From an uncultured Chlorobiaceae bacterium (lineage in GTDB: Bacteria; Bacteroidota; Chlorobiia; Chlorobiales; Chlorobiaceae): a DNA stretch of 40,865 nt. The position numbers were made by a program, and so were the translations under genes. Positions 12,149-24,609 of the stretch are shown in pieces (the stretch's first letter is position 1; each line of letters begins with the position of its first letter). The DNA is taken from contig CAISRC010000016.1 in assembly GCA_903887845.1 (NCBI GenBank), positions 1 through 40,865 on the forward strand. Reading direction: 5' to 3'. The notes below the pieces were generated by a model, which had not been told where the DNA came from, made no database searches, and worked only from the letters and a program-made list of their open reading frames with translations.

Positions 12149-12610
12149 ATGAAGCTTCTGGTTGCAATCGATTTCTCTGAACTTGCCGGGAGAGTTATTG
12201 CTGAAGCAGAAAAACTTGCAAAAAGCCTCTCGGCACAAGTTTTTCTGCTTCATGTCATTCCACCCTCCTCACCAATTCTTGATGTACCTCCAGAAGTCGA
12301 AACATTGCTCCCCGCTCAAAAGACGCATAATAACGAGGGTTTTCCGCTCAGCGAAGAGCCTGAATCCAAGAGACTTCTGACTGTTGCCGCAAAGCTGCAG
12401 GAAAAAGGCATTGATACCTCAGTCATTATTGCACAAAACGACGAGGTTACGGCGATTATCGGTGAAAGCAAGAAAAACAGTGTTGATATGATCATGCTTG
12501 GATCGCATGGACACGGAGCACTTTTTCACCTGCTCATTGGCAGCGTCTCGGAAGGAGTAATCCGGCAGGCATCCTGCCCGGTCATTATCGTGCCTTCAAA
12601 AAAGTGGTGA
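12149..12610 (+). CDS. Universal stress protein (UspA family)
   Basis: A single-domain Usp of 153 residues. It starts with the typical strand KLLVAIDFSELAGRVI and ends with the nucleotide-binding signature GSHGHGALFHLLIGSVSEGVI, followed by CPVIIVP. This is the ATP-binding subclass (G-x2-G-x9-G-S). It follows the Pmp3-type gene by 9 bases and converges on leuA. No strong terminator is seen in the 56-base gap. Confidence 0.92.
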   Translation: MKLLVAIDFSELAGRVIAEAEKLAKSLSAQVFLLHVIPPSSPILDVPPEVETLLPAQKTHNNEGFPLSEEPESKRLLTVAAKLQEKGIDTSVIIAQNDEVTAIIGESKKNSVDMIMLGSHGHGALFHLLIGSVSEGVIRQASCPVIIVPSKKW

Positions 12611-12666: not shown

Positions 12667-14343
12667 TTACGGAAGCCTGTTCAGGGCACTGACCGTCGCC
12701 TTGATTGATGCAAGACTGATATTCGAATCAATACCGGCACCATAAGAGAGACTGCCATCAGCACAAACAATCTTGATGTAAGCAACCGCCAAGGCTCCGG
12801 CGCTGCGCCCGATAGCATGTTCGGCATACTCGTCAACACTGAAATCCAGTCCGCTCTCCCTGATAAATCCCTTGACAAAGGCATCAAGAGGACCATTCCC
12901 CTGTGCTTCAAAGCTGAACTCCCGCTCTTTCGTCTGCACGACACAACTGATGGTAGTATCCTCTTCATCCTGACGACGAGGCTCCTCATCATCCCAGGTG
13001 ATATGGCACTTCTTGAGGGTAACCGGCTCCCTGAGTTTTACATACTCCGCATGAAACAGTTCATGAATCTGCTCAGGAGTCAACTCTGCGCCTGTGGTAT
13101 CGGCAACGCCCTGAACCGCCTCAGCAAAATCAGGCTGCATCCATTTCGGAATTTGAATCCCGTAATCCTTCTCAAGAACGTAAGCGACACCTCCCTTTCC
13201 GGACTGACTGTTGATACGCACTATGGCCTCATAGGTGCAGCCAACGTCCTGAGGATCGATGGGCAAATAGGGAACTGCCCACAAGCCACCGAGCGAAGAT
13301 GGCTGCGCTTTCATCCCTTTGCTGATAGCATCCTGGTGCGAACCTGAAAAAGCGGTATAGACCAGATCACCGGCATAAGGATGACGGGAATGAATATCCA
13401 TACGGGTACAGCGCCGATAAACATCCCGAATACGGGGCAGATCAGAAAAATCAAGTTCAGGATCAACTCCCTGGGTAAAGAGGTTCAGCGCCATAGTGAC
13501 AATATCCATATTGCCGCACCGCTCACCATTGCCAAACAATGCTCCCTCAACACGGTCAGCGCCAGCCATCACGGCCAATTCAGCCGTAGCAACGGCAGTA
13601 CCGCGATCATTATGGGCATGAACACTGATCAGGACAGCATCTCTCGCCTTGATGTTGCGGCAAAACCACTCAATCCGGTCAGCATAAATATTCGGCTGCG
13701 ACATCTCAACAGTAGAGGGCAGGTTCAAAATAATCTTGTCATCCGCAGAAGCGCCCCAGGTATCCATAACCGCATGGCAGACATCCAGCGCATAATCAAG
13801 CTCGGTGCCGGTAAAACTTTCAGGGCTGTACTCGAGGCGAATACCAGCGTTGCCAGATTCATCCTTAAGACGGCGAACAAGCGCTGTCCCCTCAATCGCA
13901 ATTGCCTTGATCTCCTCCCTGTTTTTGCGGAAGACCACATCCCGCTGCAAGGTCGACGTCGAGTTGTAAAGATGCACAATGGCATGTTTCGCCCCGCTGA
14001 TGGCATCGAATGTTTTTCGAATCAGATGTTCGCGCGCCTGGGTCAACACCTGGATGGTGACATCATCAGGAATCAGGTTGCCATCAATCAGCCGCCGGGC
14101 AAAAGCATACTCGGTTGCTGATGCGGAAGGAAAACCAACCTCAATCTCCTTGAAACCGATTGAAACCAGAAGCTGGAACATGGCAACCTTTTCATCAACG
14201 CTCATCGGCACAGGAAGCGCCTGGTTGCCATCCCGAAGATCAACACTGCTCCATATCGGGGCTTTCGTGATGGTCTTGTCTGGCCAACTTCTCCCGGCAA
14301 GAGCAACCTGGGGATATGGCGCATACTTTTTATAATTCATCAT
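12667..14343 (-). CDS. leuA: 2-isopropylmalate synthase
   Basis: LeuA condenses acetyl-CoA with 2-oxoisovalerate in the first committed step of leucine synthesis. The N-terminal HMGL-like TIM barrel contains the metal/catalytic motif SVDLRDGNQALP, the GFKEIEVGFPS strand and HAHNDRGTAVA. After a linker comes the C-terminal LeuA regulatory domain (VDEYAEHAIG and the end at SALNRLP), which binds leucine for feedback inhibition. The long type with APIWSSVDLRDGNQ fits the fungal/actinobacterial LeuA2 group. The ATG at 14343 is chosen because GGGAG lies 8 bases upstream; ATG 14349 and GTG 14352 are too close to it. Expression is probably attenuated by the leader at 14392-14541. Confidence 0.96.
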   Translation of the reverse strand: MMNYKKYAPYPQVALAGRSWPDKTITKAPIWSSVDLRDGNQALPVPMSVDEKVAMFQLLVSIGFKEIEVGFPSASATEYAFARRLIDGNLIPDDVTIQVLTQAREHLIRKTFDAISGAKHAIVHLYNSTSTLQRDVVFRKNREEIKAIAIEGTALVRRLKDESGNAGIRLEYSPESFTGTELDYALDVCHAVMDTWGASADDKIILNLPSTVEMSQPNIYADRIEWFCRNIKARDAVLISVHAHNDRGTAVATAELAVMAGADRVEGALFGNGERCGNMDIVTMALNLFTQGVDPELDFSDLPRIRDVYRRCTRMDIHSRHPYAGDLVYTAFSGSHQDAISKGMKAQPSSLGGLWAVPYLPIDPQDVGCTYEAIVRINSQSGKGGVAYVLEKDYGIQIPKWMQPDFAEAVQGVADTTGAELTPEQIHELFHAEYVKLREPVTLKKCHITWDDEEPRRQDEEDTTISCVVQTKEREFSFEAQGNGPLDAFVKGFIRESGLDFSVDEYAEHAIGRSAGALAVAYIKIVCADGSLSYGAGIDSNISLASIKATVSALNRLP

Positions 14344-14391
14344 GGTCATCACTCCCTTTTCTTCTTTTTATGAATGGATATATAAATGGAT

Positions 14392-14777: not shown

Positions 14778-16445
14778 CTACCGCAACCAGTTCCGTATAA
14801 TCCGGATAATCTCCTTTTTACTGCGGGTTTCAAGCATCATATTTCGCCAATAGCTGTCAGCAGCCATTTTGCTGATGACGCCAAGAAGCTGAATGTGACT
14901 GTCAGGATCGGACTGTGGAGAGAGGATCAGAAACATAATCCGTGTTGTTTTGCCTGATTCTGCATCATAAATGCCTACCCGGCTGACGCCTATAGCGAGA
15001 ACCGGTTTGTTGAGATTGTCAAGTCTGGCATGAGGAATGGCGATATCTGCACCAACAAAGGTACCTCCCTGCAGCTCCCGTTCAAAAAGGCCCTTGAGCG
15101 CACTCACTTCGTCAATACCAGGATTGACAAGACAGCATTCGTGAAGCAACTGGCGAAAAGCCTCTTCCTTTTCAAGAACACTATCCCAAAGGAGAACAAT
15201 TGCACTCCTGATCACCCCTTTCCATCCATATTGAGACCGGCTTACTGCTGCAAGGCTTCCTTTAAAACCGGAAAAGAGTTTTGGCTTTTGTACAACACCG
15301 TCTTCCCTGGTATCGAGAACAATGACGTTGATACCCCTACATTCACTGATCAAACGTTCAATAATGGTCTGTCGACCCTGAAGACGTTGCCATAACGAAA
15401 GTTTTCTTCCTGAATTGCCGATAATGATGTGTCCGACACGATATTCCCTGGCAAACTGCAGAATGGTTTTAACCACATCGTCACCTTTATAGGTAAATAC
15501 CGTAGCGCCAAGTTCCTGGGCAAGAGCAAGTGTATTGGAAAGCAATCGTTGAACTTTTGCATCAATATTGATTGGACTCTCTGAAAGTGTCTTCACATAG
15601 ACCGCATACCAGTCTCTGTTCAGTCTCCCTGCTATACGCGATGCGTAGCGCAGAATGGCATCACAGTTCCGGGTTTTTGAACTGAGGCAAACCATAAGCT
15701 GATCAGGATTGGCAACCGAGTCATCATGAAAGTGGTGCCGTCGCTTCGAATCAAGCTGTGCGGCAAGCTCTCGCAGGGTCAGCTCCCTGAGCTGCTCAAG
15801 ATTTTCAGATTGAAAAAAGTTGGAGAGGGCCGTCTCCAGAAGACCAGGAACATAGACTTTTCCTTCGGAGAGGCGCTGACGCAGATCATCGGTTGTAATA
15901 TCAACATTGACAAGCTGATCGGCCAGCACCAGAATTCGGTCAGGCACACGTTCCTTAACCTTCACTCCGGTGGCCTGTTCTACCAGTTCATAAAGGCTTT
16001 CGATATGCTGAATGTTCAAGGTGGAAATAACATGAATACCGGCAGCAAGAATCTCCTCAACATCTTCATATCTTCTGGTATTTCTGTTTCCCGGAATATT
16101 GGTATGGGCAAGTTCATCAACAAGCACAACTGAGGGACGACGCTGAAGAACAGCATCAACATCCATTTCGGTAATTTCAATGCCCCGATATAACATACTT
16201 TTTCGGGGAATAATCTCCAGCCCTGACAGCAGGGCTTCAGTCTCTTTCCTGTTATGGGTTTCTACAAGGCCAACAACAACATCAATCCCATTGTCTTTAA
16301 GACGTCTTGCCTCCTGCAGCATTTGCCAGGTTTTGCCGACTCCGGCGCAGTAACCAAGATAAATCTTGAGTTTGCCGCGTTGAGATCGCTGAATCAGATG
16401 CAAAAAGCTGTCAGCTCGGTTGCTCTCCAAAGTTTTCTCTTCCAT
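14778..16445 (-). CDS. KdpD-like regulator without kinase: KdpD N-domain + Usp domain + PTS EIIA domain
   Basis: A 555-residue protein with three parts. Residues 20-230 are the KdpD N-terminal domain, with a Walker A variant GYCAGVGKT (31-39), GLVETHNRKETEALL, VLVDELAHTNIPG and STLNIQHIESL. Residues about 245-375 are the Usp-like domain of KdpD, ending in IIIGNSGRKLSLWQRL and INVIVLD. Residues about 400-555 are not the KdpD membrane/histidine-kinase half but a PTS EIIA type-2 (fructose/EIIA-Ntr) domain, with the phospho-His motif IAIPHARLD (His472). The frame is intact, so this is a fusion and not decay. In enterobacteria free EIIA-Ntr binds KdpD and modulates Kdp; here the two are one polypeptide. 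It is the last gene of the kdp operon, 20 bases after kdpC. Confidence 0.88.
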   Translation of the reverse strand: MEEKTLESNRADSFLHLIQRSQRGKLKIYLGYCAGVGKTWQMLQEARRLKDNGIDVVVGLVETHNRKETEALLSGLEIIPRKSMLYRGIEITEMDVDAVLQRRPSVVLVDELAHTNIPGNRNTRRYEDVEEILAAGIHVISTLNIQHIESLYELVEQATGVKVKERVPDRILVLADQLVNVDITTDDLRQRLSEGKVYVPGLLETALSNFFQSENLEQLRELTLRELAAQLDSKRRHHFHDDSVANPDQLMVCLSSKTRNCDAILRYASRIAGRLNRDWYAVYVKTLSESPINIDAKVQRLLSNTLALAQELGATVFTYKGDDVVKTILQFAREYRVGHIIIGNSGRKLSLWQRLQGRQTIIERLISECRGINVIVLDTREDGVVQKPKLFSGFKGSLAAVSRSQYGWKGVIRSAIVLLWDSVLEKEEAFRQLLHECCLVNPGIDEVSALKGLFERELQGGTFVGADIAIPHARLDNLNKPVLAIGVSRVGIYDAESGKTTRIMFLILSPQSDPDSHIQLLGVISKMAADSYWRNMMLETRSKKEIIRIIRNWLR

Positions 16446-17070: not shown

Positions 17071-19155
17071 TTAAACAAGAGCGGTCAATGCAAGAACCAT
17101 ATCAATCAGCTTGATGCCGACAAAGGGCACCATGACGCCTCCCAAACCATAGATAATCAGATTTTTACGAAGGAGGGTATCGGCTCCCATCGGGCGATAT
17201 TTAACGCCCCTGATAGCAACAGGTATCAGCAGAGGAATGATAATGGCATTAAAAATCAATGAGGAGAGAATTGCGCTTTCGGGTGTCGCAAGATGCATGA
17301 TATTGAGGACCTGAAGCCCTGGTATTGCCAGAACAAACATTGCCGGAATAATGGCAAAGTATTTTGCGACATCGTTGGCGATAGAAAACGTCGTCAGCGC
17401 ACCTCGCGTCATAAGCAACTGTTTGCCGATTTCGATAATCTCAATGAGTTTTGTTGGATCACTGTCGAGATCGACCATATTTCCCGCCTCTTTGGCCGCC
17501 TGGGTACCGGAGTTCATAGCGACTCCAATATCAGCCTGGGCAAGCGCTGGCGCATCATTGGTGCCATCCCCCATCATGGCAAGAAGTCTTCCGCTCTGCT
17601 GTTCTTTTCGTATATAATGCAGTTTGTCTTCGGGACGCGCTGAGGCAATGAAATCATCGACGCCAGCCTGGGCTGCAATGGCTGCGGCAGTAAGTGGATT
17701 GTCACCGGTCACCATCACCACGCGCAAACCCATGGCACGAAGACGGGCAAAACGGTCGTAGATGCCGGGTTTGAGAATATCGGAAAGAGCAATCACACCA
17801 AGAAGCTCCTTACCTTCAGCGACAGCAATAGGGGTCATGCCCTTGCGGGCAACATCATCAACCAACCCCTGTAATGTTTCGGAGACCGTTCCGCCCAATC
17901 TTGCACAATAGTTTATGAGTGTATCAGGCGCACCTTTGCGGAGGCTCTGACCATCGGGGAAATCAATACCACTCATTCGGGATTGAGCTGAAAACGGCAC
18001 AACTTTTCCTTCACCATCATAAACAGCCTTTATGCCCAACGTTTTTTCAGCAAGAGTAATAATTGATTTTCCTTCAGGCGTCTGATCGCCGAATGATGCC
18101 TTCATGGCAATCGAAGCAAGACGATCCCTGCTGATACCCGGCAAAGGAAAATAATCCGTTGCCTGTCGGTTGCCCATGGTGATGGTACCGGTCTTGTCAA
18201 GAAGGAGTGTGTCAATATCTCCGGCAAGCTCCACGGCTTTGCCGCTCTTTGCCAGCACATTGGCAGAAAGTGCCCGATCCATACCAGCAATCCCTATGGC
18301 GGAAAGCAGTGCTCCAATGGTGGTCGGAATAAGGCAGACAAGGAGAGCTACCAGCGTCGGCACAGGAAGGGTTATACCAAAATATTTACCGATTGGCCAG
18401 AGTGTACCCGTTACCATTAAAAACGCCAGCGTAAGACCTGCAAGGGTCACCGTCAGAGCAAGTTCATTGGGTGTTTTCTGCCTGACGGCCCCCTCGACGA
18501 GGGCGATCATTTTATCAAGAAAGGAGTGTCCTGATGAAACGGCAATACGAACAACGATATAATCCGAGATGACTCGTGTTCCTCCGACAACTCCGGATCG
18601 ATCGCCACCAGCCTCTCTTACTACCGGTGCTGACTCTCCGGTAATGGCCGATTCATCAACCAGAGCGGCCCCTTCAATAATCTCGCCATCTCCAGGAATA
18701 ATTTCCCCGGTCAAGACAATAACCCGGTCACCTTCCTGGAGTTCGTCAGAATTTACGGATTCCTCTTTACCATCACTTACTCTTCTTGCAACCGTATTCT
18801 GGCGTGTACGTTTGAGACTCTCCGCCTGGGCCTTGCCCCGGGCTTCCGCCAGGGCTTCGGCAAAGTTTGAAAACATCACCGTAAGCCACAATATGAGCAT
18901 GACCGTTACGGTATAGAGTTGGTGTCCAACTCCACTCATGGCATTGACACCTGCAATAAGTGTTGTCAGCACGGCTCCTGCTTCAGTAACAAACATGACA
19001 GGATTTTTTACCATAGCCCTTGGGTCAAGCATCACTATTGAGCGTCGAAGTGCGCTGATAACAAGCTCCTTTTGAAAAATAGAGCTTTTTTTCATCTGAC
19101 GACGCTCGAATTTAGCCTGATCAGAGGGATGTGGCAGAGAATGACTGTTCATCAT
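17071..19155 (-). CDS. kdpB: Potassium-transporting P-type ATPase subunit B
   Basis: KdpB is the P-type ATPase subunit that powers high-affinity potassium uptake in KdpFABC at the inner membrane. The catalytic phosphorylation motif DKTGTITMGNR, the TGES actuator loop (DESAITGESAPV) and the hinge MMGDGTNDAPALAQADIGVAM are complete. GMTPIAVAEGKELLGV is also present. The start ATGATG at 19155, 5 bases after the kdpA stop, gives 694 residues, close to the usual length. The longer frame up to 19344 lies inside kdpA and is rejected. Confidence 0.97.
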   Translation of the reverse strand: MMNSHSLPHPSDQAKFERRQMKKSSIFQKELVISALRRSIVMLDPRAMVKNPVMFVTEAGAVLTTLIAGVNAMSGVGHQLYTVTVMLILWLTVMFSNFAEALAEARGKAQAESLKRTRQNTVARRVSDGKEESVNSDELQEGDRVIVLTGEIIPGDGEIIEGAALVDESAITGESAPVVREAGGDRSGVVGGTRVISDYIVVRIAVSSGHSFLDKMIALVEGAVRQKTPNELALTVTLAGLTLAFLMVTGTLWPIGKYFGITLPVPTLVALLVCLIPTTIGALLSAIGIAGMDRALSANVLAKSGKAVELAGDIDTLLLDKTGTITMGNRQATDYFPLPGISRDRLASIAMKASFGDQTPEGKSIITLAEKTLGIKAVYDGEGKVVPFSAQSRMSGIDFPDGQSLRKGAPDTLINYCARLGGTVSETLQGLVDDVARKGMTPIAVAEGKELLGVIALSDILKPGIYDRFARLRAMGLRVVMVTGDNPLTAAAIAAQAGVDDFIASARPEDKLHYIRKEQQSGRLLAMMGDGTNDAPALAQADIGVAMNSGTQAAKEAGNMVDLDSDPTKLIEIIEIGKQLLMTRGALTTFSIANDVAKYFAIIPAMFVLAIPGLQVLNIMHLATPESAILSSLIFNAIIIPLLIPVAIRGVKYRPMGADTLLRKNLIIYGLGGVMVPFVGIKLIDMVLALTALV

Positions 19156-19159
19156 TATT

Positions 19160-20830
19160 TCAATGATTGATTGCAGTAAGATGATCGGCGACCGGACCAA
19201 GAACAGCGACGGGCAGAAAAAGAAGTGCCCCGATAAACACAACGCTGCCGAGAATAATAAGCCCAAAAAGCAGTGTGTCAGTGCGAAGGGTTCCGGCTGT
19301 TTTGGGAACCGGCTGTTTTGATGCCAGTGAACTGGCAATGGCAAGAGGCAGAATGACAGGAATGTATCGTCCCAGCAGCATCACCACACCTGTGGCAATG
19401 TTCCAGGGAACCGTATTATCAGCAAGCCCCTCGAAACCGGAACCATTGTTCGCTGCCGCAGAGGTAAACTCATAGAGAATTTCGGTAAACCCGTGGGCAC
19501 CGTTATTCAGTACCGTTGCGGCACCTGCCGGAGTTGCCGCAAACAGTGCTGTCCCTCCCAGAATCAGCGCGGGATGAACCAGCAAAGCAAGCAGCGCAAG
19601 CGTCATTTCACGGGTTTCAACCTTTCGGCCAAAATATTCCGGTGTACGACCCACCATCATGCCGCAGATAAAAACACCGACAACGATAAAAATAAACATG
19701 TTGATGAGGCCAACACCAACGCCGCCAAAAACCACATTCATCCACATACCGGCAAGTGGCACAAGGCCGGTCAGCGGGTTGAGGCTGTCGTGCATACAGT
19801 TGACAGAACCATTGCTTGTCGCCGTTGTCAAAGCAGCCCAAAATGCGCCAGCCCCTGATCCAAAACGAAGTTCCTTGCCTTCCAGATTTGGGGTTATGTC
19901 AACGGGAAAACCAGACAATGCCGCAGCCGGAGCACTTTCAAACCAGATTGCCGCTGCACTTTTCAAAAGCAGCAACGCCATCATGACCGAAAATATCACA
20001 ACTGCATCGCGCATTCGTCCCGTGATGCGCCCGAACATCCAGACCACAGCCATGGGAAGCAAAACAAGAGTAACACACTCCACTATATTGGTAAAGAACG
20101 AAGGATTCTCGAACGGATGAGCTGAATTGCCGCCAAAAAAACCTCCCCCGTTTGTGCCAAGCTGCTTGATCGCCACCATAGCAGCTACGGGCCCGCGTGC
20201 TATTGTTTGTGTTGCACCCTCAAGGGTGTGAGCTACTATCGCGCCATCCAGAGTCATCGGTACGCCTCCTGCCAGAAGAAGCAAAGCAACAAAAAGAGAC
20301 AGCGGCAGCAGAATAAAAAAAGTGATGCGCAGCAGATCACGGTAATAATTACCGACAGTCTGCTTCCCGCCGAGCGCTCTGGCAAGAGCCGCAAGGCAGG
20401 CAATTCCTGTACCAGCCGAAACAAACTGCAGCCACATCAACCCGAAAAGCTGAGAAAAATAGCTCATGGATACTTCACCGGAGTAGTGCTGCAAGTTGGT
20501 ATTCGTCACAAACGATGCCGCTGTATTAAATATAAGGCTTGCCTCAAGCGGCCCTTTCGCATCAGGATTCAATGGAAGCCACTGCTGCAGGGCAAGAATG
20601 ATCGTCACAAACGCAAACATCACAACGTTGAACACCATCATGGAAAGGAGATAGCGCTTCCAATCCTGCTCTTCGATGACCGGGGCGCCGCCGATTTTTC
20701 TGAAAATGCCTGAAGTCCATAGGCCATAGCCAGATGCCTCATCAGGCTCGATCAGTCGTGCCATAGCGAGTCCAAGAGGCCATGACAAGAGGAGAGGAAC
20801 AACCAGTAACAATAAATAGAGCTGCGACAT
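19160..20830 (-). CDS. kdpA: Potassium-transporting ATPase subunit A
   Basis: KdpA is the channel-like potassium-binding subunit of KdpFABC, with about ten transmembrane helices. Selectivity-filter-like loops are visible: FVTNTNLQHYSGE, QLGTNGGGFFGGNSAHPFENP, TTATSNGSVNCMHDS and SAAANNGSGFEG. The ATG at 20830 (MSQLYLLLLVVPLLL) gives 556 residues. The upstream in-frame extension runs through kdpF and is rejected. kdpF ends 10 bases upstream. Confidence 0.97.
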   Translation of the reverse strand: MSQLYLLLLVVPLLLSWPLGLAMARLIEPDEASGYGLWTSGIFRKIGGAPVIEEQDWKRYLLSMMVFNVVMFAFVTIILALQQWLPLNPDAKGPLEASLIFNTAASFVTNTNLQHYSGEVSMSYFSQLFGLMWLQFVSAGTGIACLAALARALGGKQTVGNYYRDLLRITFFILLPLSLFVALLLLAGGVPMTLDGAIVAHTLEGATQTIARGPVAAMVAIKQLGTNGGGFFGGNSAHPFENPSFFTNIVECVTLVLLPMAVVWMFGRITGRMRDAVVIFSVMMALLLLKSAAAIWFESAPAAALSGFPVDITPNLEGKELRFGSGAGAFWAALTTATSNGSVNCMHDSLNPLTGLVPLAGMWMNVVFGGVGVGLINMFIFIVVGVFICGMMVGRTPEYFGRKVETREMTLALLALLVHPALILGGTALFAATPAGAATVLNNGAHGFTEILYEFTSAAANNGSGFEGLADNTVPWNIATGVVMLLGRYIPVILPLAIASSLASKQPVPKTAGTLRTDTLLFGLIILGSVVFIGALLFLPVAVLGPVADHLTAINH

Positions 20831-20840
20831 GACTTGATTG

Positions 20841-20921
20841 TTAAAATTTCTCAGGATTGACAATGGCAAAAACCAGGTAAACCATGCAGGCGAGAAAAGT
20901 GAGTAATACCACAATATCCAT
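20841..20921 (-). CDS. kdpF: KdpF small stabilising subunit
   Basis: A 26-codon ORF encodes one transmembrane helix ending in the typical KdpF tail (YLVFAIVNPEKF). KdpF sits between KdpA and KdpB and stabilises the complex. It has a good ribosome binding site, GGAGG, 6 bases before the ATG and precedes kdpA in the canonical FABC order. Confidence 0.88.
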   Translation of the reverse strand: MDIVVLLTFLACMVYLVFAIVNPEKF

Positions 20922-20922
20922 A

Positions 20923-21021
20923 TTAACCTCCGATATGAAAAATGAGACCGACGAATGCTGCAAGCCCTGCAAGAATCAGAAAAATGAGTATGCCGAGATA
21001 AAGATGATGGTAGACATTCAT
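20923..21021 (-). CDS. 32-residue single-helix membrane peptide upstream of kdpF, unknown family
   Basis: A 33-codon ORF with ATG at 21021 and TAA at 20923-20925, one base before the kdpF start. It encodes MNVYHHLYLG followed by a hydrophobic helix (ILIFLILAGLAAFVGLIF) and HIGG. The kdpF ribosome binding site is formed by its last codons (GGA GGT), so the two are translationally coupled. An upstream AAGGACGGTGA is a possible ribosome binding site. I do not recognise the family; position suggests an extra Kdp-associated peptide. Confidence 0.6.
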   Translation of the reverse strand: MNVYHHLYLGILIFLILAGLAAFVGLIFHIGG

Positions 21022-21066: not shown

Positions 21067-22899
21067 TTATTGATTGTCTTGTCGGACGGGTAGAGTAAAA
21101 TAAAATACCGACCCCTTCCCTTCGACATTTTCAGCGCCAACTGTTCCTCCTTGTGCTTCAACAATCTCCTTCACAATAGAAAGCCCAAGACCGATTCCGC
21201 TTTTTGCTTTTTGGCCCGGAACCCGATAAAACCTTTCGAAAAGATGCTCAAGATGTTCAGATGCTATACCGTTCCCGGTATCTTCAACGGAGAATTTGAT
21301 CTTTTCATCCTCTTCAGCAGCGCTGATGGTTACTTTACCGCCCGGCGAGGTAAACCGCAATGCATTCGAAAGAAGGTTCGCAAAAACATGCTTGATGCGT
21401 TCCGGATCTGCTATAACGTCAGGCAATCCCTCATGAATAGTATTGACAATGGCTACCCCCTGATCAGTGGCATGAAGCATGAACGGCTCAATACCTTCGC
21501 CGCTGAGACGAAAAGGAGAAACCGGAATAATGTTCATAGGGGCTTTTCCCGATTCAATCCGGTTGAGCTCCAGAAGATCATCAAGCATACGTGCAAGCCG
21601 CTCACTCTCATCACGTGCAGACAACAACAGATCTGCCTGCTGTTCGTTGAGATGACCTATGCGTTCTTCAAGCAGAAGATGAACAGACATTCGCAACGAG
21701 GTAAGAGGGGTTCGCAACTGATGGGATACCGTAGCAATAACACTGCGCTTGAGCTCAAGCTGTTCGTGAAGCTGTGTCACATCCCTGAAGATCAGCGCTG
21801 TTCCGGTAAACTCCTCTCGCTCAGCGCTAAAAGGAACAGGTACTACCACAGGTTGAAAAAAGTACTCACTCCTCCCATCGAAATGCTGAATGTAGTCATG
21901 ACCCTCTTCCGACTCCGTTGCGGAACCCTGTCGAACCGTCTTCTGCCACACTCCCTTCAGCCAGTCATGACCGATATCCTGAACAAAAACACCCGCTTTC
22001 AACCCAAAATATCGTTCCGCAGTGTCAGTGGATACTGCAACTTGTCCATTTGCATCCAGCACCGCAATTGGCAAGGGTAGAACCTTGAACACCTCCTGCG
22101 TTACCCGCCGACTGCGATAAAGCTTGTCCTGATCGCTTTTGCGCATTTTTCGGAGAGTTGCAGCCATATCGTTAAATGATTGTGAAAGCTGCCCGATTTC
22201 ATCCTTTGAGGTGGTATCAAGAACAAGATCAAGATTGCCTTTCCGAATCTCTTCGACTGATGCGCTCAACTTTTTGATCGGCATGAGAATCCAGCGATGG
22301 GATCGAAAGCTGAACAAGAGAGCAATAAGTGCACTGGCAAAAATAGCCGAGAGCATGGTATTGTGCGCCGATGCCGCCATCTGGCGAGCATTATCGTTTG
22401 CCGCCTGCATGTTCGCCTGGTTCATCTCCAGAACCTGAGCTGAGAGTTGCTTAATTTGCTGAGAAAGCGGAAGCAGGTCAGTAAAATATCGTCGCTGGCG
22501 TTCGGGAAAAGAGATCGATAGATCTGTAACCTGTTTAATAATAAAATTATACCTAAAAAAAAGAGTATTGATTTGCATGGCTTTCTGATGTTCACCGGGA
22601 AGGGTGATATTGCCAAGCTCCACGCGAAGTGCATGACGAAAGTTTTGTTCATTCTCGTGAATAGTGGTCATTCCATCATCGTAATGACCTGCAAAGGTAA
22701 ACAAGGCGCCACTGTCAATGCGATCAAGAGACTCAGTCATTTTCTGGCAGGCAACCACACTGCGATAGTTTTGCCTGAGAATAACATCAATAGCTCCGCC
22801 AAGGGCATCAATGTGACGTATTGTAAGCACTCCTATTGCAACAACAATGAGAAGCAGACCTCCGAATCCCAGAACCAGTTTTTGTCTTATACCAATCAT
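21067..22899 (-). CDS. Membrane sensor histidine kinase (HAMP-PAS-HisKA-HATPase), KinB-like
   Basis: A 610-residue inner-membrane sensor kinase. The first transmembrane helix is at 8-28, then a helical periplasmic domain of about 150 residues, and a second helix at 183-199. HAMP follows (about 200-255, MPIKKLSASVEEIRKGNLD), then PAS (about 265-380). The dimerisation/phosphoacceptor box VSHQLRTPL has His393. The ATPase domain contains HVFANLLSNALRF, VEDTGNGIA and GIGLGLSIV. The layout resembles Pseudomonas KinB, the partner of AlgB. It lies between the NtrC-type regulator and kdpF, 45 bases before the small membrane peptide, so it is probably the first gene of the kdp transcript. AGGAG precedes the ATG. 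Confidence 0.92.
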   Translation of the reverse strand: MIGIRQKLVLGFGGLLLIVVAIGVLTIRHIDALGGAIDVILRQNYRSVVACQKMTESLDRIDSGALFTFAGHYDDGMTTIHENEQNFRHALRVELGNITLPGEHQKAMQINTLFFRYNFIIKQVTDLSISFPERQRRYFTDLLPLSQQIKQLSAQVLEMNQANMQAANDNARQMAASAHNTMLSAIFASALIALLFSFRSHRWILMPIKKLSASVEEIRKGNLDLVLDTTSKDEIGQLSQSFNDMAATLRKMRKSDQDKLYRSRRVTQEVFKVLPLPIAVLDANGQVAVSTDTAERYFGLKAGVFVQDIGHDWLKGVWQKTVRQGSATESEEGHDYIQHFDGRSEYFFQPVVVPVPFSAEREEFTGTALIFRDVTQLHEQLELKRSVIATVSHQLRTPLTSLRMSVHLLLEERIGHLNEQQADLLLSARDESERLARMLDDLLELNRIESGKAPMNIIPVSPFRLSGEGIEPFMLHATDQGVAIVNTIHEGLPDVIADPERIKHVFANLLSNALRFTSPGGKVTISAAEEDEKIKFSVEDTGNGIASEHLEHLFERFYRVPGQKAKSGIGLGLSIVKEIVEAQGGTVGAENVEGKGSVFYFTLPVRQDNQ

Positions 22900-22934: not shown

Positions 22935-22951
22935 ATGCAAAAAGTGTACCA
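22935..22951 (-). promoter_or_regulatory. Sigma-54 (RpoN) promoter driving the kinase-kdp operon
   Basis: On the minus strand the sequence TGGTACACTTTTTGCAT fits the sigma-54 consensus TGGYACRN4TTGCW at every defined position. The -24 GG and -12 GC are 10 bases apart. Transcription would start near 22925, about 26 bases before the kinase ATG. The adjacent gene encodes a sigma-54 activator, which supports the call. Confidence 0.82.
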
Positions 22952-23078: not shown

Positions 23079-24410
23079 TTAAATTCCATACTGTTTTCGT
23101 TTTCTCCAGAGCGTCGCCTGATCAATACCAAGAAGCTCTGCTGCTTCTTGAAGAGATTTTGTTGAAGCAAGAATACGACGAATATGGTGCTCCTCAATAA
23201 CCTCCAGGGTTAACGGATCGCCAAGAGAGACCGTATGTATTTTTTTTACAATGCTTTCAGGAAGAAGTTCCAGTCCAATACCATCTGTTTTGCTCAAAAT
23301 AACAGCTCGTTCAATAACATTGCGTAATTCGCGAATATTGCCCGGCCACGAGTAGGTTCTGAGTGCTTGCATAGCCGTATCCGTAAATCCTTCAAGTTTT
23401 TTGTGATTCTGGGCCGCAAAAAACTTCAGCATACTCACAGCAAGCTGTTCAACATCATCAGGACGGGCTGCAAGAGGTGGCAAATCAATCTGGATAACAT
23501 TCAACCGATAAAAAAGGTCCTCACGAAAACGCCCCTCTTTTACCTCTTTTTCAAGCTCTTTATTGGTTGCGGCAATAATCCTGACATTAGCTTTGCGTGT
23601 TTGATGATCACCTATCCTTTCATACTCCCGATCCTGAATAAAGCGAAGAAGTTTTGGCTGAATTGAAAGAGGCAGGTCTCCGATTTCATCAAGAAACAGG
23701 GAACCCCCTTCACAGGAAAAGACTCGTCCCGGATTATCCCTGACAGCTCCGGTAAATGATCCCTTCACATGCCCAAAAAGCTCACTTTCAAGCAGCTCAT
23801 TGCTTAATGAAGGACAAGAGATAACCCCGAATGGTTTGTCAGCTCTGCTGCTCCAGTTATGAAGGGTACGCGCAAGCACCGTTTTGCCGGTGCCGCTCGG
23901 GCCACTTAAAAGAACAACAGCTTCAGACGAGGCAACCTGACGAGCCAACTCAACAAGCCGTTGCATAGAGGGATAACGGGTTGTAAAAGTAATCTCAGGA
24001 TGAATGCGGCTCAAATCTTCCTTCAAAGTCACAATTCGCCGCTCCATCTCACTCACTTCAGCAATACGTCTTATAACAAGATCAAGTTGATCTGGTGTAA
24101 ACGGCTTGGCAATATAGTCAGATGCACCCCGCTTAATAGCTTCGACAGCGCTCTCAATCGAAGCATAAGCAGTAATCACCACAACCTTGATCCATGGATA
24201 AGTATGAAGCATCAACTGCACCAGATCAAGCCCGTTCGCTGTTCCCAAACGCAAGTCAATAAAGACAAGATCAAACACCTGACGATCAGCCTCTGCCATT
24301 GCATCCCTGGAATTGCTGACCGCTTTCACAAAATGGCCTCGCGATTCCATAAAAACCATAAGAGTTTTGCGAATGTTGATTTCATCATCAACAATGAGGA
24401 CATTAAGCAT
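23079..24410 (-). CDS. Sigma-54-dependent response regulator, NtrC/AlgB type
   Basis: A 443-residue activator in three domains. The receiver (1-120) has acidic pocket Asp8/Asp9, phosphoacceptor Asp52 and Lys102. The AAA+ domain has Walker A GPSGTGKT (170-177), a sigma-54 contact loop GSFTGA (217-222) in place of the usual GAFTGA, Walker B SLFLDEIGDLP, and the arginine-finger region RFREDLFYRLNV. The C-terminal Fis-type helix-turn-helix ends in LGIDQATLWRKRKQYGI, which resembles AlgB. It lies directly upstream of the sensor kinase gene and the sigma-54 promoter, so it is the likely activator of the kinase-kdp operon. The 179-base gap to the kinase also contains a small dyad (AGCTTG/CAAGCT) without a U tract. 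Confidence 0.93.
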   Translation of the reverse strand: MLNVLIVDDEINIRKTLMVFMESRGHFVKAVSNSRDAMAEADRQVFDLVFIDLRLGTANGLDLVQLMLHTYPWIKVVVITAYASIESAVEAIKRGASDYIAKPFTPDQLDLVIRRIAEVSEMERRIVTLKEDLSRIHPEITFTTRYPSMQRLVELARQVASSEAVVLLSGPSGTGKTVLARTLHNWSSRADKPFGVISCPSLSNELLESELFGHVKGSFTGAVRDNPGRVFSCEGGSLFLDEIGDLPLSIQPKLLRFIQDREYERIGDHQTRKANVRIIAATNKELEKEVKEGRFREDLFYRLNVIQIDLPPLAARPDDVEQLAVSMLKFFAAQNHKKLEGFTDTAMQALRTYSWPGNIRELRNVIERAVILSKTDGIGLELLPESIVKKIHTVSLGDPLTLEVIEEHHIRRILASTKSLQEAAELLGIDQATLWRKRKQYGI

Positions 24411-24534: not shown

Positions 24535-24609
24535 TGGCTCCGCGGGCAGGACTCGAACCTGCAACCCTGCGATTAACAGTCGCATGCTCTACCATTGAGC
24601 TACCGCGGA
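24535..24609 (-). tRNA. tRNA-Asn (anticodon GTT), CCA encoded
   Basis: A complete cloverleaf is visible on the minus strand. The acceptor is TCCGCGG/CCGCGGA, the D arm GCTC/GAGC, the anticodon stem TGCGA/TCGCA around CTGTTAA (GTT, Asn), and the T arm GCAGG/CCTGC with TTCGAGT. The discriminator is G and the CCA end is encoded at 24535-24537. Confidence 0.97.

What the first reader, a model, noticed from the sequence alone, without database searches (positions are those of the whole stretch)
14778..16445. KdpD-like protein with kinase half replaced by a PTS EIIA domain
The ORF is intact and joins the KdpD N-terminal ATP-binding domain and Usp domain to an EIIA type-2 domain with its phospho-His (His472, IPHAR). 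Free EIIA-Ntr (PtsN) is known to bind KdpD in enterobacteria; here evolution seems to have fused them, and the kinase function is taken over by another protein. It may sense phospho-PTS or nucleotide state and modulate the pump or the neighbouring kinase.
Basis: partly seen in the sequence, partly recalled or inferred. Interest (0 to 1): 0.7.

Follow-up and report, generated by a model that had tools for sequence, protein, structure and literature searches.

The report
Potassium-pump kinase fused to PTS sensor
In green sulfur bacteria and some sulfate-reducer relatives, the short KdpD protein (whose E. coli counterpart domain is a serine kinase that shuts the Kdp potassium pump) carries an extra phosphate-relay (EIIA) domain at its end, suggesting that potassium uptake is tied directly to the cell's PEP-driven signalling relay.

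Summary
The minus-strand gene 14778-16445 encodes an intact 555-aa protein: KdpD N-domain, Usp domain, variable linker, PTS_EIIA_2 domain with His472. Profiles, solved homologues and a predicted fold support the domains. The same fused frame occurs in 50 genome-contig loci, mostly Chlorobiaceae plus Desulfobacterota, with His472 in 51 of 51 sequences. The interpretation needs correcting. The retained N-domain is itself catalytic: E. coli KdpD's N-domain is an atypical serine kinase that inactivates KdpB (PMC11018627); its key residues and the KdpB TGES target are present here. KdpD/Usp forms without a histidine kinase are a known class; the novelty is the added EIIA. That EIIA is not the organism's own free EIIA fused in place: the free one persists and forms a separate clade. 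The genome encodes EI, HPr and HPr kinase, but no PTS_EIIC and no c-di-AMP cyclase (the known input of short KdpDs). A conserved -24/-12 element precedes the operon, next to an NtrC-type regulator. Four relatives without Kdp keep the fused protein beside a KimA-type potassium importer. Likely role: PTS-responsive serine-kinase regulator of potassium uptake. New variant of a known kind; mechanism untested.

The parts
14778..16445 (-). kdpD-EIIA fusion gene, 555 aa: KdpD/serine-kinase domain (aa 22-235), Usp (aa 246-380), variable linker (about aa 379-405/421), EIIA type 2 (aa 406-555)
15030..15032 (-). codon of His472 (IPHAR), predicted phospho-histidine of the EIIA domain
   Evidence: aligned with the PtsN active-site IPHGR; invariant 51/51
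16113..16121 (-). Walker B core V109-D110-E111 (VDELAHT); with Walker A GYCAGVGKT (aa 31-39) and R191 the predicted serine-kinase active site
   Evidence: role of the E. coli counterparts from PMC11018627
16466..17053 (-). kdpC
   Evidence: PF02669 4.7e-55
17071..19155 (-). kdpB, 694 aa from the ATG near 19155 (mechanical ORF extends to 19344); carries DESAITGES, whose serine is the target of the KdpD serine kinase in E. coli
19160..20830 (-). kdpA, 556 aa from the ATG near 20830 (mechanical ORF extends to 20914)
20841..20921 (-). kdpF-like peptide MDIVVLLTFLACMVYLVFAIVNPEKF
20923..21021 (-). 32-aa hydrophobic peptide MNVYHHLYLGILIFLILAGLAAFVGLIFHIGG, conserved between the kinase gene and kdpF
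21067..22899 (-). separate histidine kinase (HAMP, HisKA, HATPase_c), 610 aa, not KdpD-like
22936..22951 (-). -24/-12 (sigma-54-like) element TGGTACACTTTTTGCA upstream of the kinase gene; best-scoring site of the window
23079..24410 (-). NtrC-type sigma-54 response regulator, 443 aa
   Evidence: RpoN present in genome

Best explanation
The protein is a soluble, PTS-responsive regulator of potassium uptake built as serine-kinase domain (KdpD N-domain) + Usp + EIIA. Proposed working: (1) at sufficient K+ the N-domain, with ATP at its Walker A/B site, phosphorylates the serine of the TGES loop of KdpB and shuts the pump, as E. coli and Deinococcus geothermalis KdpD do; (2) His472 of the EIIA domain takes phosphate from HPr~P, fed by EI and PEP, so its phosphorylation state reports PEP/energy (possibly nitrogen) status; (3) that state gates the serine kinase in cis and/or docks the protein on the neighbouring histidine kinase in trans (as free PtsN does on KdpD), thus also setting transcription through the NtrC-type regulator and the sigma-54-like element. 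Shown here: domains, conserved residues, genetic setting, PTS relay genes, no detected c-di-AMP cyclase or PTS_EIIC. Inferred: every catalytic and regulatory step.
For: Domains by profile, solved homologues and fold. Serine-kinase residues K38, D110, E111 invariant where covered (48/48) and R191 invariant (48/48); aromatic at position 40 in all kdp-linked copies; KdpB keeps DESAITGES in all 17 loci checked. The E. coli counterparts of these residues were tested in PMC11018627. EIIA active-site residues R456, E457 and H472 invariant (51/51), H517 in 49 of 50. EI, HPr (LHTRP; KSIIGV) and HPr kinase in the genome, no PTS_EIIC. c-di-AMP cyclase, the known input of a short KdpD, not found in any of 39 genomes of the window's family. 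Constant linkage to kinase and NtrC-type regulator; -24/-12-like element 25-40 bases before the kinase gene in 16 of 18 kdp-bearing loci. Free PtsN binds KdpD in several Proteobacteria, and a second ptsN sits in some alpha-proteobacterial kdp operons (PMC9239096, PMC13104625).
Against: No biochemical test. Nothing shows that this EIIA is phosphorylated or that its state changes serine-kinase activity. Desulfobacterota with the fusion, and G164, also have a c-di-AMP cyclase, so EIIA cannot be explained simply as a substitute for c-di-AMP. Four genomes keep the fused protein without Kdp, so KdpB cannot be its only target. The full-length model is only moderately confident in the KdpD part.
Confidence: 0.55

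Rival explanations
1. The EIIA domain acts only in trans on the separate histidine kinase: the fused protein is an adaptor that switches the kinase and NtrC-type regulator according to PTS state, and serine phosphorylation of KdpB is secondary or lost.
For: Kinase and regulator accompany nearly every fused copy with sufficient flanks, even where kdpABC is missing. Free PtsN interacts with the transmitter domain of E. coli KdpD (Mork-Morkenstein 2017, reference title seen in PMC13104625) and with the GAF domain in S. fredii (PMC9239096). One kdp-less clade has lost the aromatic at position 40 (Leu instead of W/Y/F), expected to weaken the adenine site.
Against: Walker A, Walker B and R191 stay invariant in all copies, including kdp-less ones, so nucleotide binding or catalysis is under selection.
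Confidence: 0.3
2. The EIIA domain is a structural or ligand-binding remnant without PTS phosphorylation; the protein works as an ordinary KdpD/Usp serine kinase.
For: The EIIA is less conserved than the KdpD and Usp parts; one of 50 copies lacks the second histidine.
Against: His472, R456 and E457 are invariant in 51 sequences down to about 32% EIIA identity; complete phosphorelay genes in the genome.
Confidence: 0.13
3. Assembly or annotation artefact joining two genes.
For: The window comes from a fragmented assembly of 144 contigs.
Against: The same continuous frame in 50 loci from many assemblies, including the isolate genome Chlorobium ferrooxidans DSM 13031 and Desulfobacterota; junction conserved.
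Confidence: 0.01

Closest known systems
KdpD/Usp-only atypical serine kinase (short KdpD, e.g. D. geothermalis; PMC11018627)
   Same: KdpD N-domain plus Usp, Walker A/B and Arg kept, no histidine-kinase core, separate kinase chain, KdpB TGES target present
   Different: Carries an extra C-terminal EIIA; the host family has no detectable c-di-AMP cyclase, which controls the Deinococcus protein; the Usp motif has Lys where the second Ser of the c-di-AMP motif is expected
PtsN (EIIA-Ntr) of PTS-Ntr
   Same: EIIA type 2 fold, invariant phospho-His, link to Kdp potassium control
   Different: A fused domain, not a free protein; below the PtsN equivalog cut-off; separate clade from the free EIIA of the same bacteria
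Full-length KdpD sensor histidine kinase
   Different: No HisKA or HATPase_c; histidine-kinase function on a separate HAMP kinase with an NtrC-type regulator instead of KdpE
CPA2-type cation/proton antiporters with C-terminal EIIA (e.g. L081, L084)
   Same: Ion-homeostasis protein with a C-terminal EIIA of this type
   Different: Membrane transporter rather than soluble kinase; how these EIIA domains relate to those of KdpD is not resolved
KimA potassium importer (PDB 6s3k)
   Same: The 660-664 aa permease of related modules matches it (E 1e-64)
   Different: Not present in the window; only in related loci

Membership tests
KdpD/Usp atypical serine kinase | KdpD N-domain | tested here: met
   PF02702 E 1.7e-92; 2r8r match
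KdpD/Usp atypical serine kinase | Walker A G-X5-GKT, Walker B D/E, aromatic/Arg adenine pair | tested here: met
   GYCAGVGKTW, VDELAHT, R191
KdpD/Usp atypical serine kinase | Histidine-kinase core absent from the chain | tested here: met
   No HisKA or HATPase_c in P0001
KdpD/Usp atypical serine kinase | KdpB with TGES serine nearby | tested here: met
   DESAITGES in window KdpB
KdpD/Usp atypical serine kinase | Serine phosphorylation of KdpB | not testable with these tools
   needs biochemistry
KdpD/Usp atypical serine kinase | Control by c-di-AMP through Usp (shown for one member, not a defining feature of the whole class) | tested here: inconclusive
   No DAC domain found in own genome or family; motif (A/G/C)XSXSX2N has K257 in place of the second Ser; binding itself not tested
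NCBIfam NF038185 KdpD_non_kinase | curated score cut-off 550 | tested here: not met
   350.7 bits
PTS EIIA type 2 | Pfam PTS_EIIA_2 above gathering score | tested here: met
   63.5 bits vs 27
PTS EIIA type 2 | Conserved phospho-His | tested here: met
   H472 51/51
PTS EIIA type 2 | Phosphorylation by HPr | not testable with these tools
   EI, HPr, HprK genes present but no assay
PtsN equivalog (TIGR01419) | cut-off 138.7 bits | tested here: not met
   49.6 bits
Full-length KdpD histidine kinase | HisKA and HATPase_c in the same chain | tested here: not met
   absent from P0001; present in the separate gene 21067-22899

The most novel reading that the evidence does not exclude
A serine kinase whose activity is set in cis by a PTS phosphorelay domain, a way to couple PEP status to ion transport that I found described nowhere; in Kdp-less relatives it has been re-aimed at a KimA-type importer or at the kinase, so that the module regulates interchangeable potassium importers.
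Probability: 0.3. Interest if true: 0.78.

Novelty: new variant of a known kind. Interest (0 to 1): 0.6.

Why it matters
Free PtsN (EIIA-Ntr) is known to touch KdpD, but in which form, at which site and to what end differs between species. A natural fusion conserved across two lineages makes the link covalent and testable in one soluble protein. It also offers a possible answer to what controls a short KdpD where c-di-AMP is apparently not made, and shows a regulatory cassette that accepts either Kdp or a KimA-type importer. No description of this fusion was found in the searchable literature.

Tried and rejected
Origin of the EIIA from the local free EIIA: rejected, separate clade with support 100/98. 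EIIA as a strict substitute for lost c-di-AMP: weakened, because fused Desulfobacterota and G164 have DAC, and some split-KdpD genomes lack it. Assembly artefact: rejected. Independent fusion in G164/L064: not decided; the KdpD tree puts it with the fused forms (100/99), but its branches are long. Sigma-54-like element upstream of kdpA, or of the kimA-like genes: not found consistently. Literature searches for a KdpD-EIIA fusion gave nothing relevant; the supplementary tables of PMC11018627, which classify KdpDs of 5495 species, could not be read, so the architecture may be listed there unremarked.

Full report
WHAT IS THERE. The gene lies on the minus strand, 16445 down to 14778, with no internal stop. 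Pfam gives KdpD at residues 22-230 and PTS_EIIA_2 at 422-552, the latter well above its cut-off. phmmer against solved structures finds the P. syringae KdpD N-domain (2r8r) and PtsN/EIIA-Ntr structures, with the IPHAR histidine, residue 472, aligned to the PtsN IPHGR histidine. A model from 19 homologues has a confident EIIA (406-555; Z 19.8 to EIIA-Ntr 1a6j, 2.2 A over 148 residues) and a recognisable Usp (247-380; Z 17.4 to the c-di-AMP-binding Usp of S. aureus KdpD, 7ji4, 2.6 A over 125 residues). Overall confidence of the model is modest (mean pLDDT 66), mainly because of the KdpD part.

SURROUNDINGS. The operon on the minus strand reads: NtrC-type regulator, histidine kinase (HAMP, HisKA, HATPase_c), a 32-aa hydrophobic peptide, kdpF, kdpA, kdpB, kdpC, kdpD-EIIA. 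The best -24/-12-like site of the window, TGGTACACTTTTTGCA at 22951-22936, lies just before the kinase gene. A similar element (mostly TGGYACG-CTATT-TGY) sits 25-40 bases before the kinase gene in 16 of 18 kdp-bearing loci compared, while the kdp-less loci show no good match there. In one search, 0.9% of random 220-base stretches score 17 or more, but 28% score 14.5 or more, so it is the constant position, not each single score, that is telling. RpoN is encoded in the genome. Transcription by sigma-54 is inference.

DISTRIBUTION. A survey of 198 genomes of the phylum found full-length relatives (about 60-90% identical) in many members of the window's family, whereas other members of the order and phylum that have KdpD carry mostly either a KdpD/Usp protein of about 370-430 aa without EIIA or a full-length KdpD; the exception is G164, with a distant fused protein. 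A scan of genome contigs with the EIIA part returned 68 loci, of which 50 hold KdpD and EIIA in one frame: mostly Chlorobiaceae, including the isolate Chlorobium ferrooxidans DSM 13031, plus Desulfobacterota such as Desulfobacterium sp. TRIP AH-1 with the same operon. His472, R456 and E457 are invariant in 51 of 51 sequences; H517 in 49 of 50; K38, D110 and E111 in 48 of 48 where covered. The linker 379-421 varies freely. Synonymous changes dominate in every domain; dN/dS for EIIA is 0.07-0.25 against the window's close relatives, 0.15 and 0.50 in two other pairs.

ORIGIN. In a tree of the KdpD-Usp part, fused forms group apart from the split Bacteroidota forms (100/99), and Chlorobiaceae sit within a series of Desulfobacterota branches. 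The tree is unrooted, so transfer from Desulfobacterota is only a suggestion. The fused EIIA is separate from the free EIIA of the same bacteria (100/98), and that free EIIA persists beside hisS and a cdsA-like gene. So the organism did not simply fuse its own PtsN-like protein.

MECHANISM. In E. coli the KdpD N-domain is an atypical serine kinase that inactivates KdpB by phosphorylating Ser162; Walker A, Walker B D/E and a Trp/Arg pair are needed (PMC11018627). All have counterparts here (GYCAGVGKTW, VDELAHT, R191), and KdpB keeps DESAITGES. That Ser162 is the serine of TGES is my own knowledge. The same paper describes KdpD/Usp chains without histidine kinase as a common class, often with the kinase on a separate chain, and shows c-di-AMP stimulation for the D. 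geothermalis protein. In the window's genome and in all 38 other family members examined no c-di-AMP cyclase domain was found, although 11 of 12 genomes from the rest of the order have it, and position 257 of the Usp motif given in PMC8214093 is Lys or Arg instead of Ser in most copies. A complete relay to an EIIA is present: EI, HPr with LHTRP and KSIIGV, HPr kinase, and no PTS_EIIC, which agrees with the description of Chlorobia as having a regulatory PTS (PMC2405797). The most economical reading is that EIIA feeds PTS state into the serine kinase, the neighbouring histidine kinase, or both. Against a simple swap of inputs: Desulfobacterota with the fusion do have the cyclase.

A SECOND IMPORTER. 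Several relatives have a 660-664 aa permease between regulator and kinase; it matches KimA (6s3k, E 1e-64). Loci come as kdp only (the window), permease only, or both. Four genomes, 98-100% complete, keep the fused protein with the permease but have no KdpA anywhere. The serine-kinase residues K38, D110, E111 and R191 are kept in kdp-less loci, although one clade of them has Leu at position 40 and Gln at 113. KdpB therefore cannot be the only partner, and the constant partners are the histidine kinase and the regulator.

VERDICT. Observation confirmed; interpretation partly right. A new variant (EIIA-bearing) of a known kind (KdpD/Usp serine kinase without histidine kinase). Interesting because it makes the PtsN-KdpD link covalent and testable.

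Noticed in passing
20923-21021 (-); also in L045, L046, L048, L050, L053-L055, L058, L061: A 28-34 aa hydrophobic peptide (MNVYHHLYLGILIFLILAG...) conserved between the histidine kinase gene and kdpF in most kdp-bearing loci; possibly an additional small Kdp subunit or regulator.
   Followed up: partly
L046:506-2497, L047, L050-L052, L060, L063, L065: KimA-type permease between regulator and kinase in relatives, absent from the window; it replaces or accompanies kdpABC.
   Followed up: partly
L075 (G169), L129 (Chlorobium ferrooxidans), L137, L148: EIIA proteins of the fused clade without the KdpD part (about 206-221 aa; cut off by the contig end in L148, where it stands directly before a regulator-permease-kinase module).
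   Followed up: partly
whole-genome searches of family f1: No c-di-AMP cyclase (DAC) domain found in 39 of 39 genomes of the window's family, although other families of the order have it.
   Followed up: partly
L081, L083, L084, L085: CPA2-type cation/proton antiporters with a C-terminal EIIA domain in other members of the phylum.
   Followed up: no
12149-12610 (+): Free-standing universal stress protein on the opposite strand near the kdp operon, separated from it by leuA (12667-14352).
   Followed up: no
24535-24609 (-): tRNA-Asn (GTT) directly upstream of the response regulator gene.
   Followed up: no
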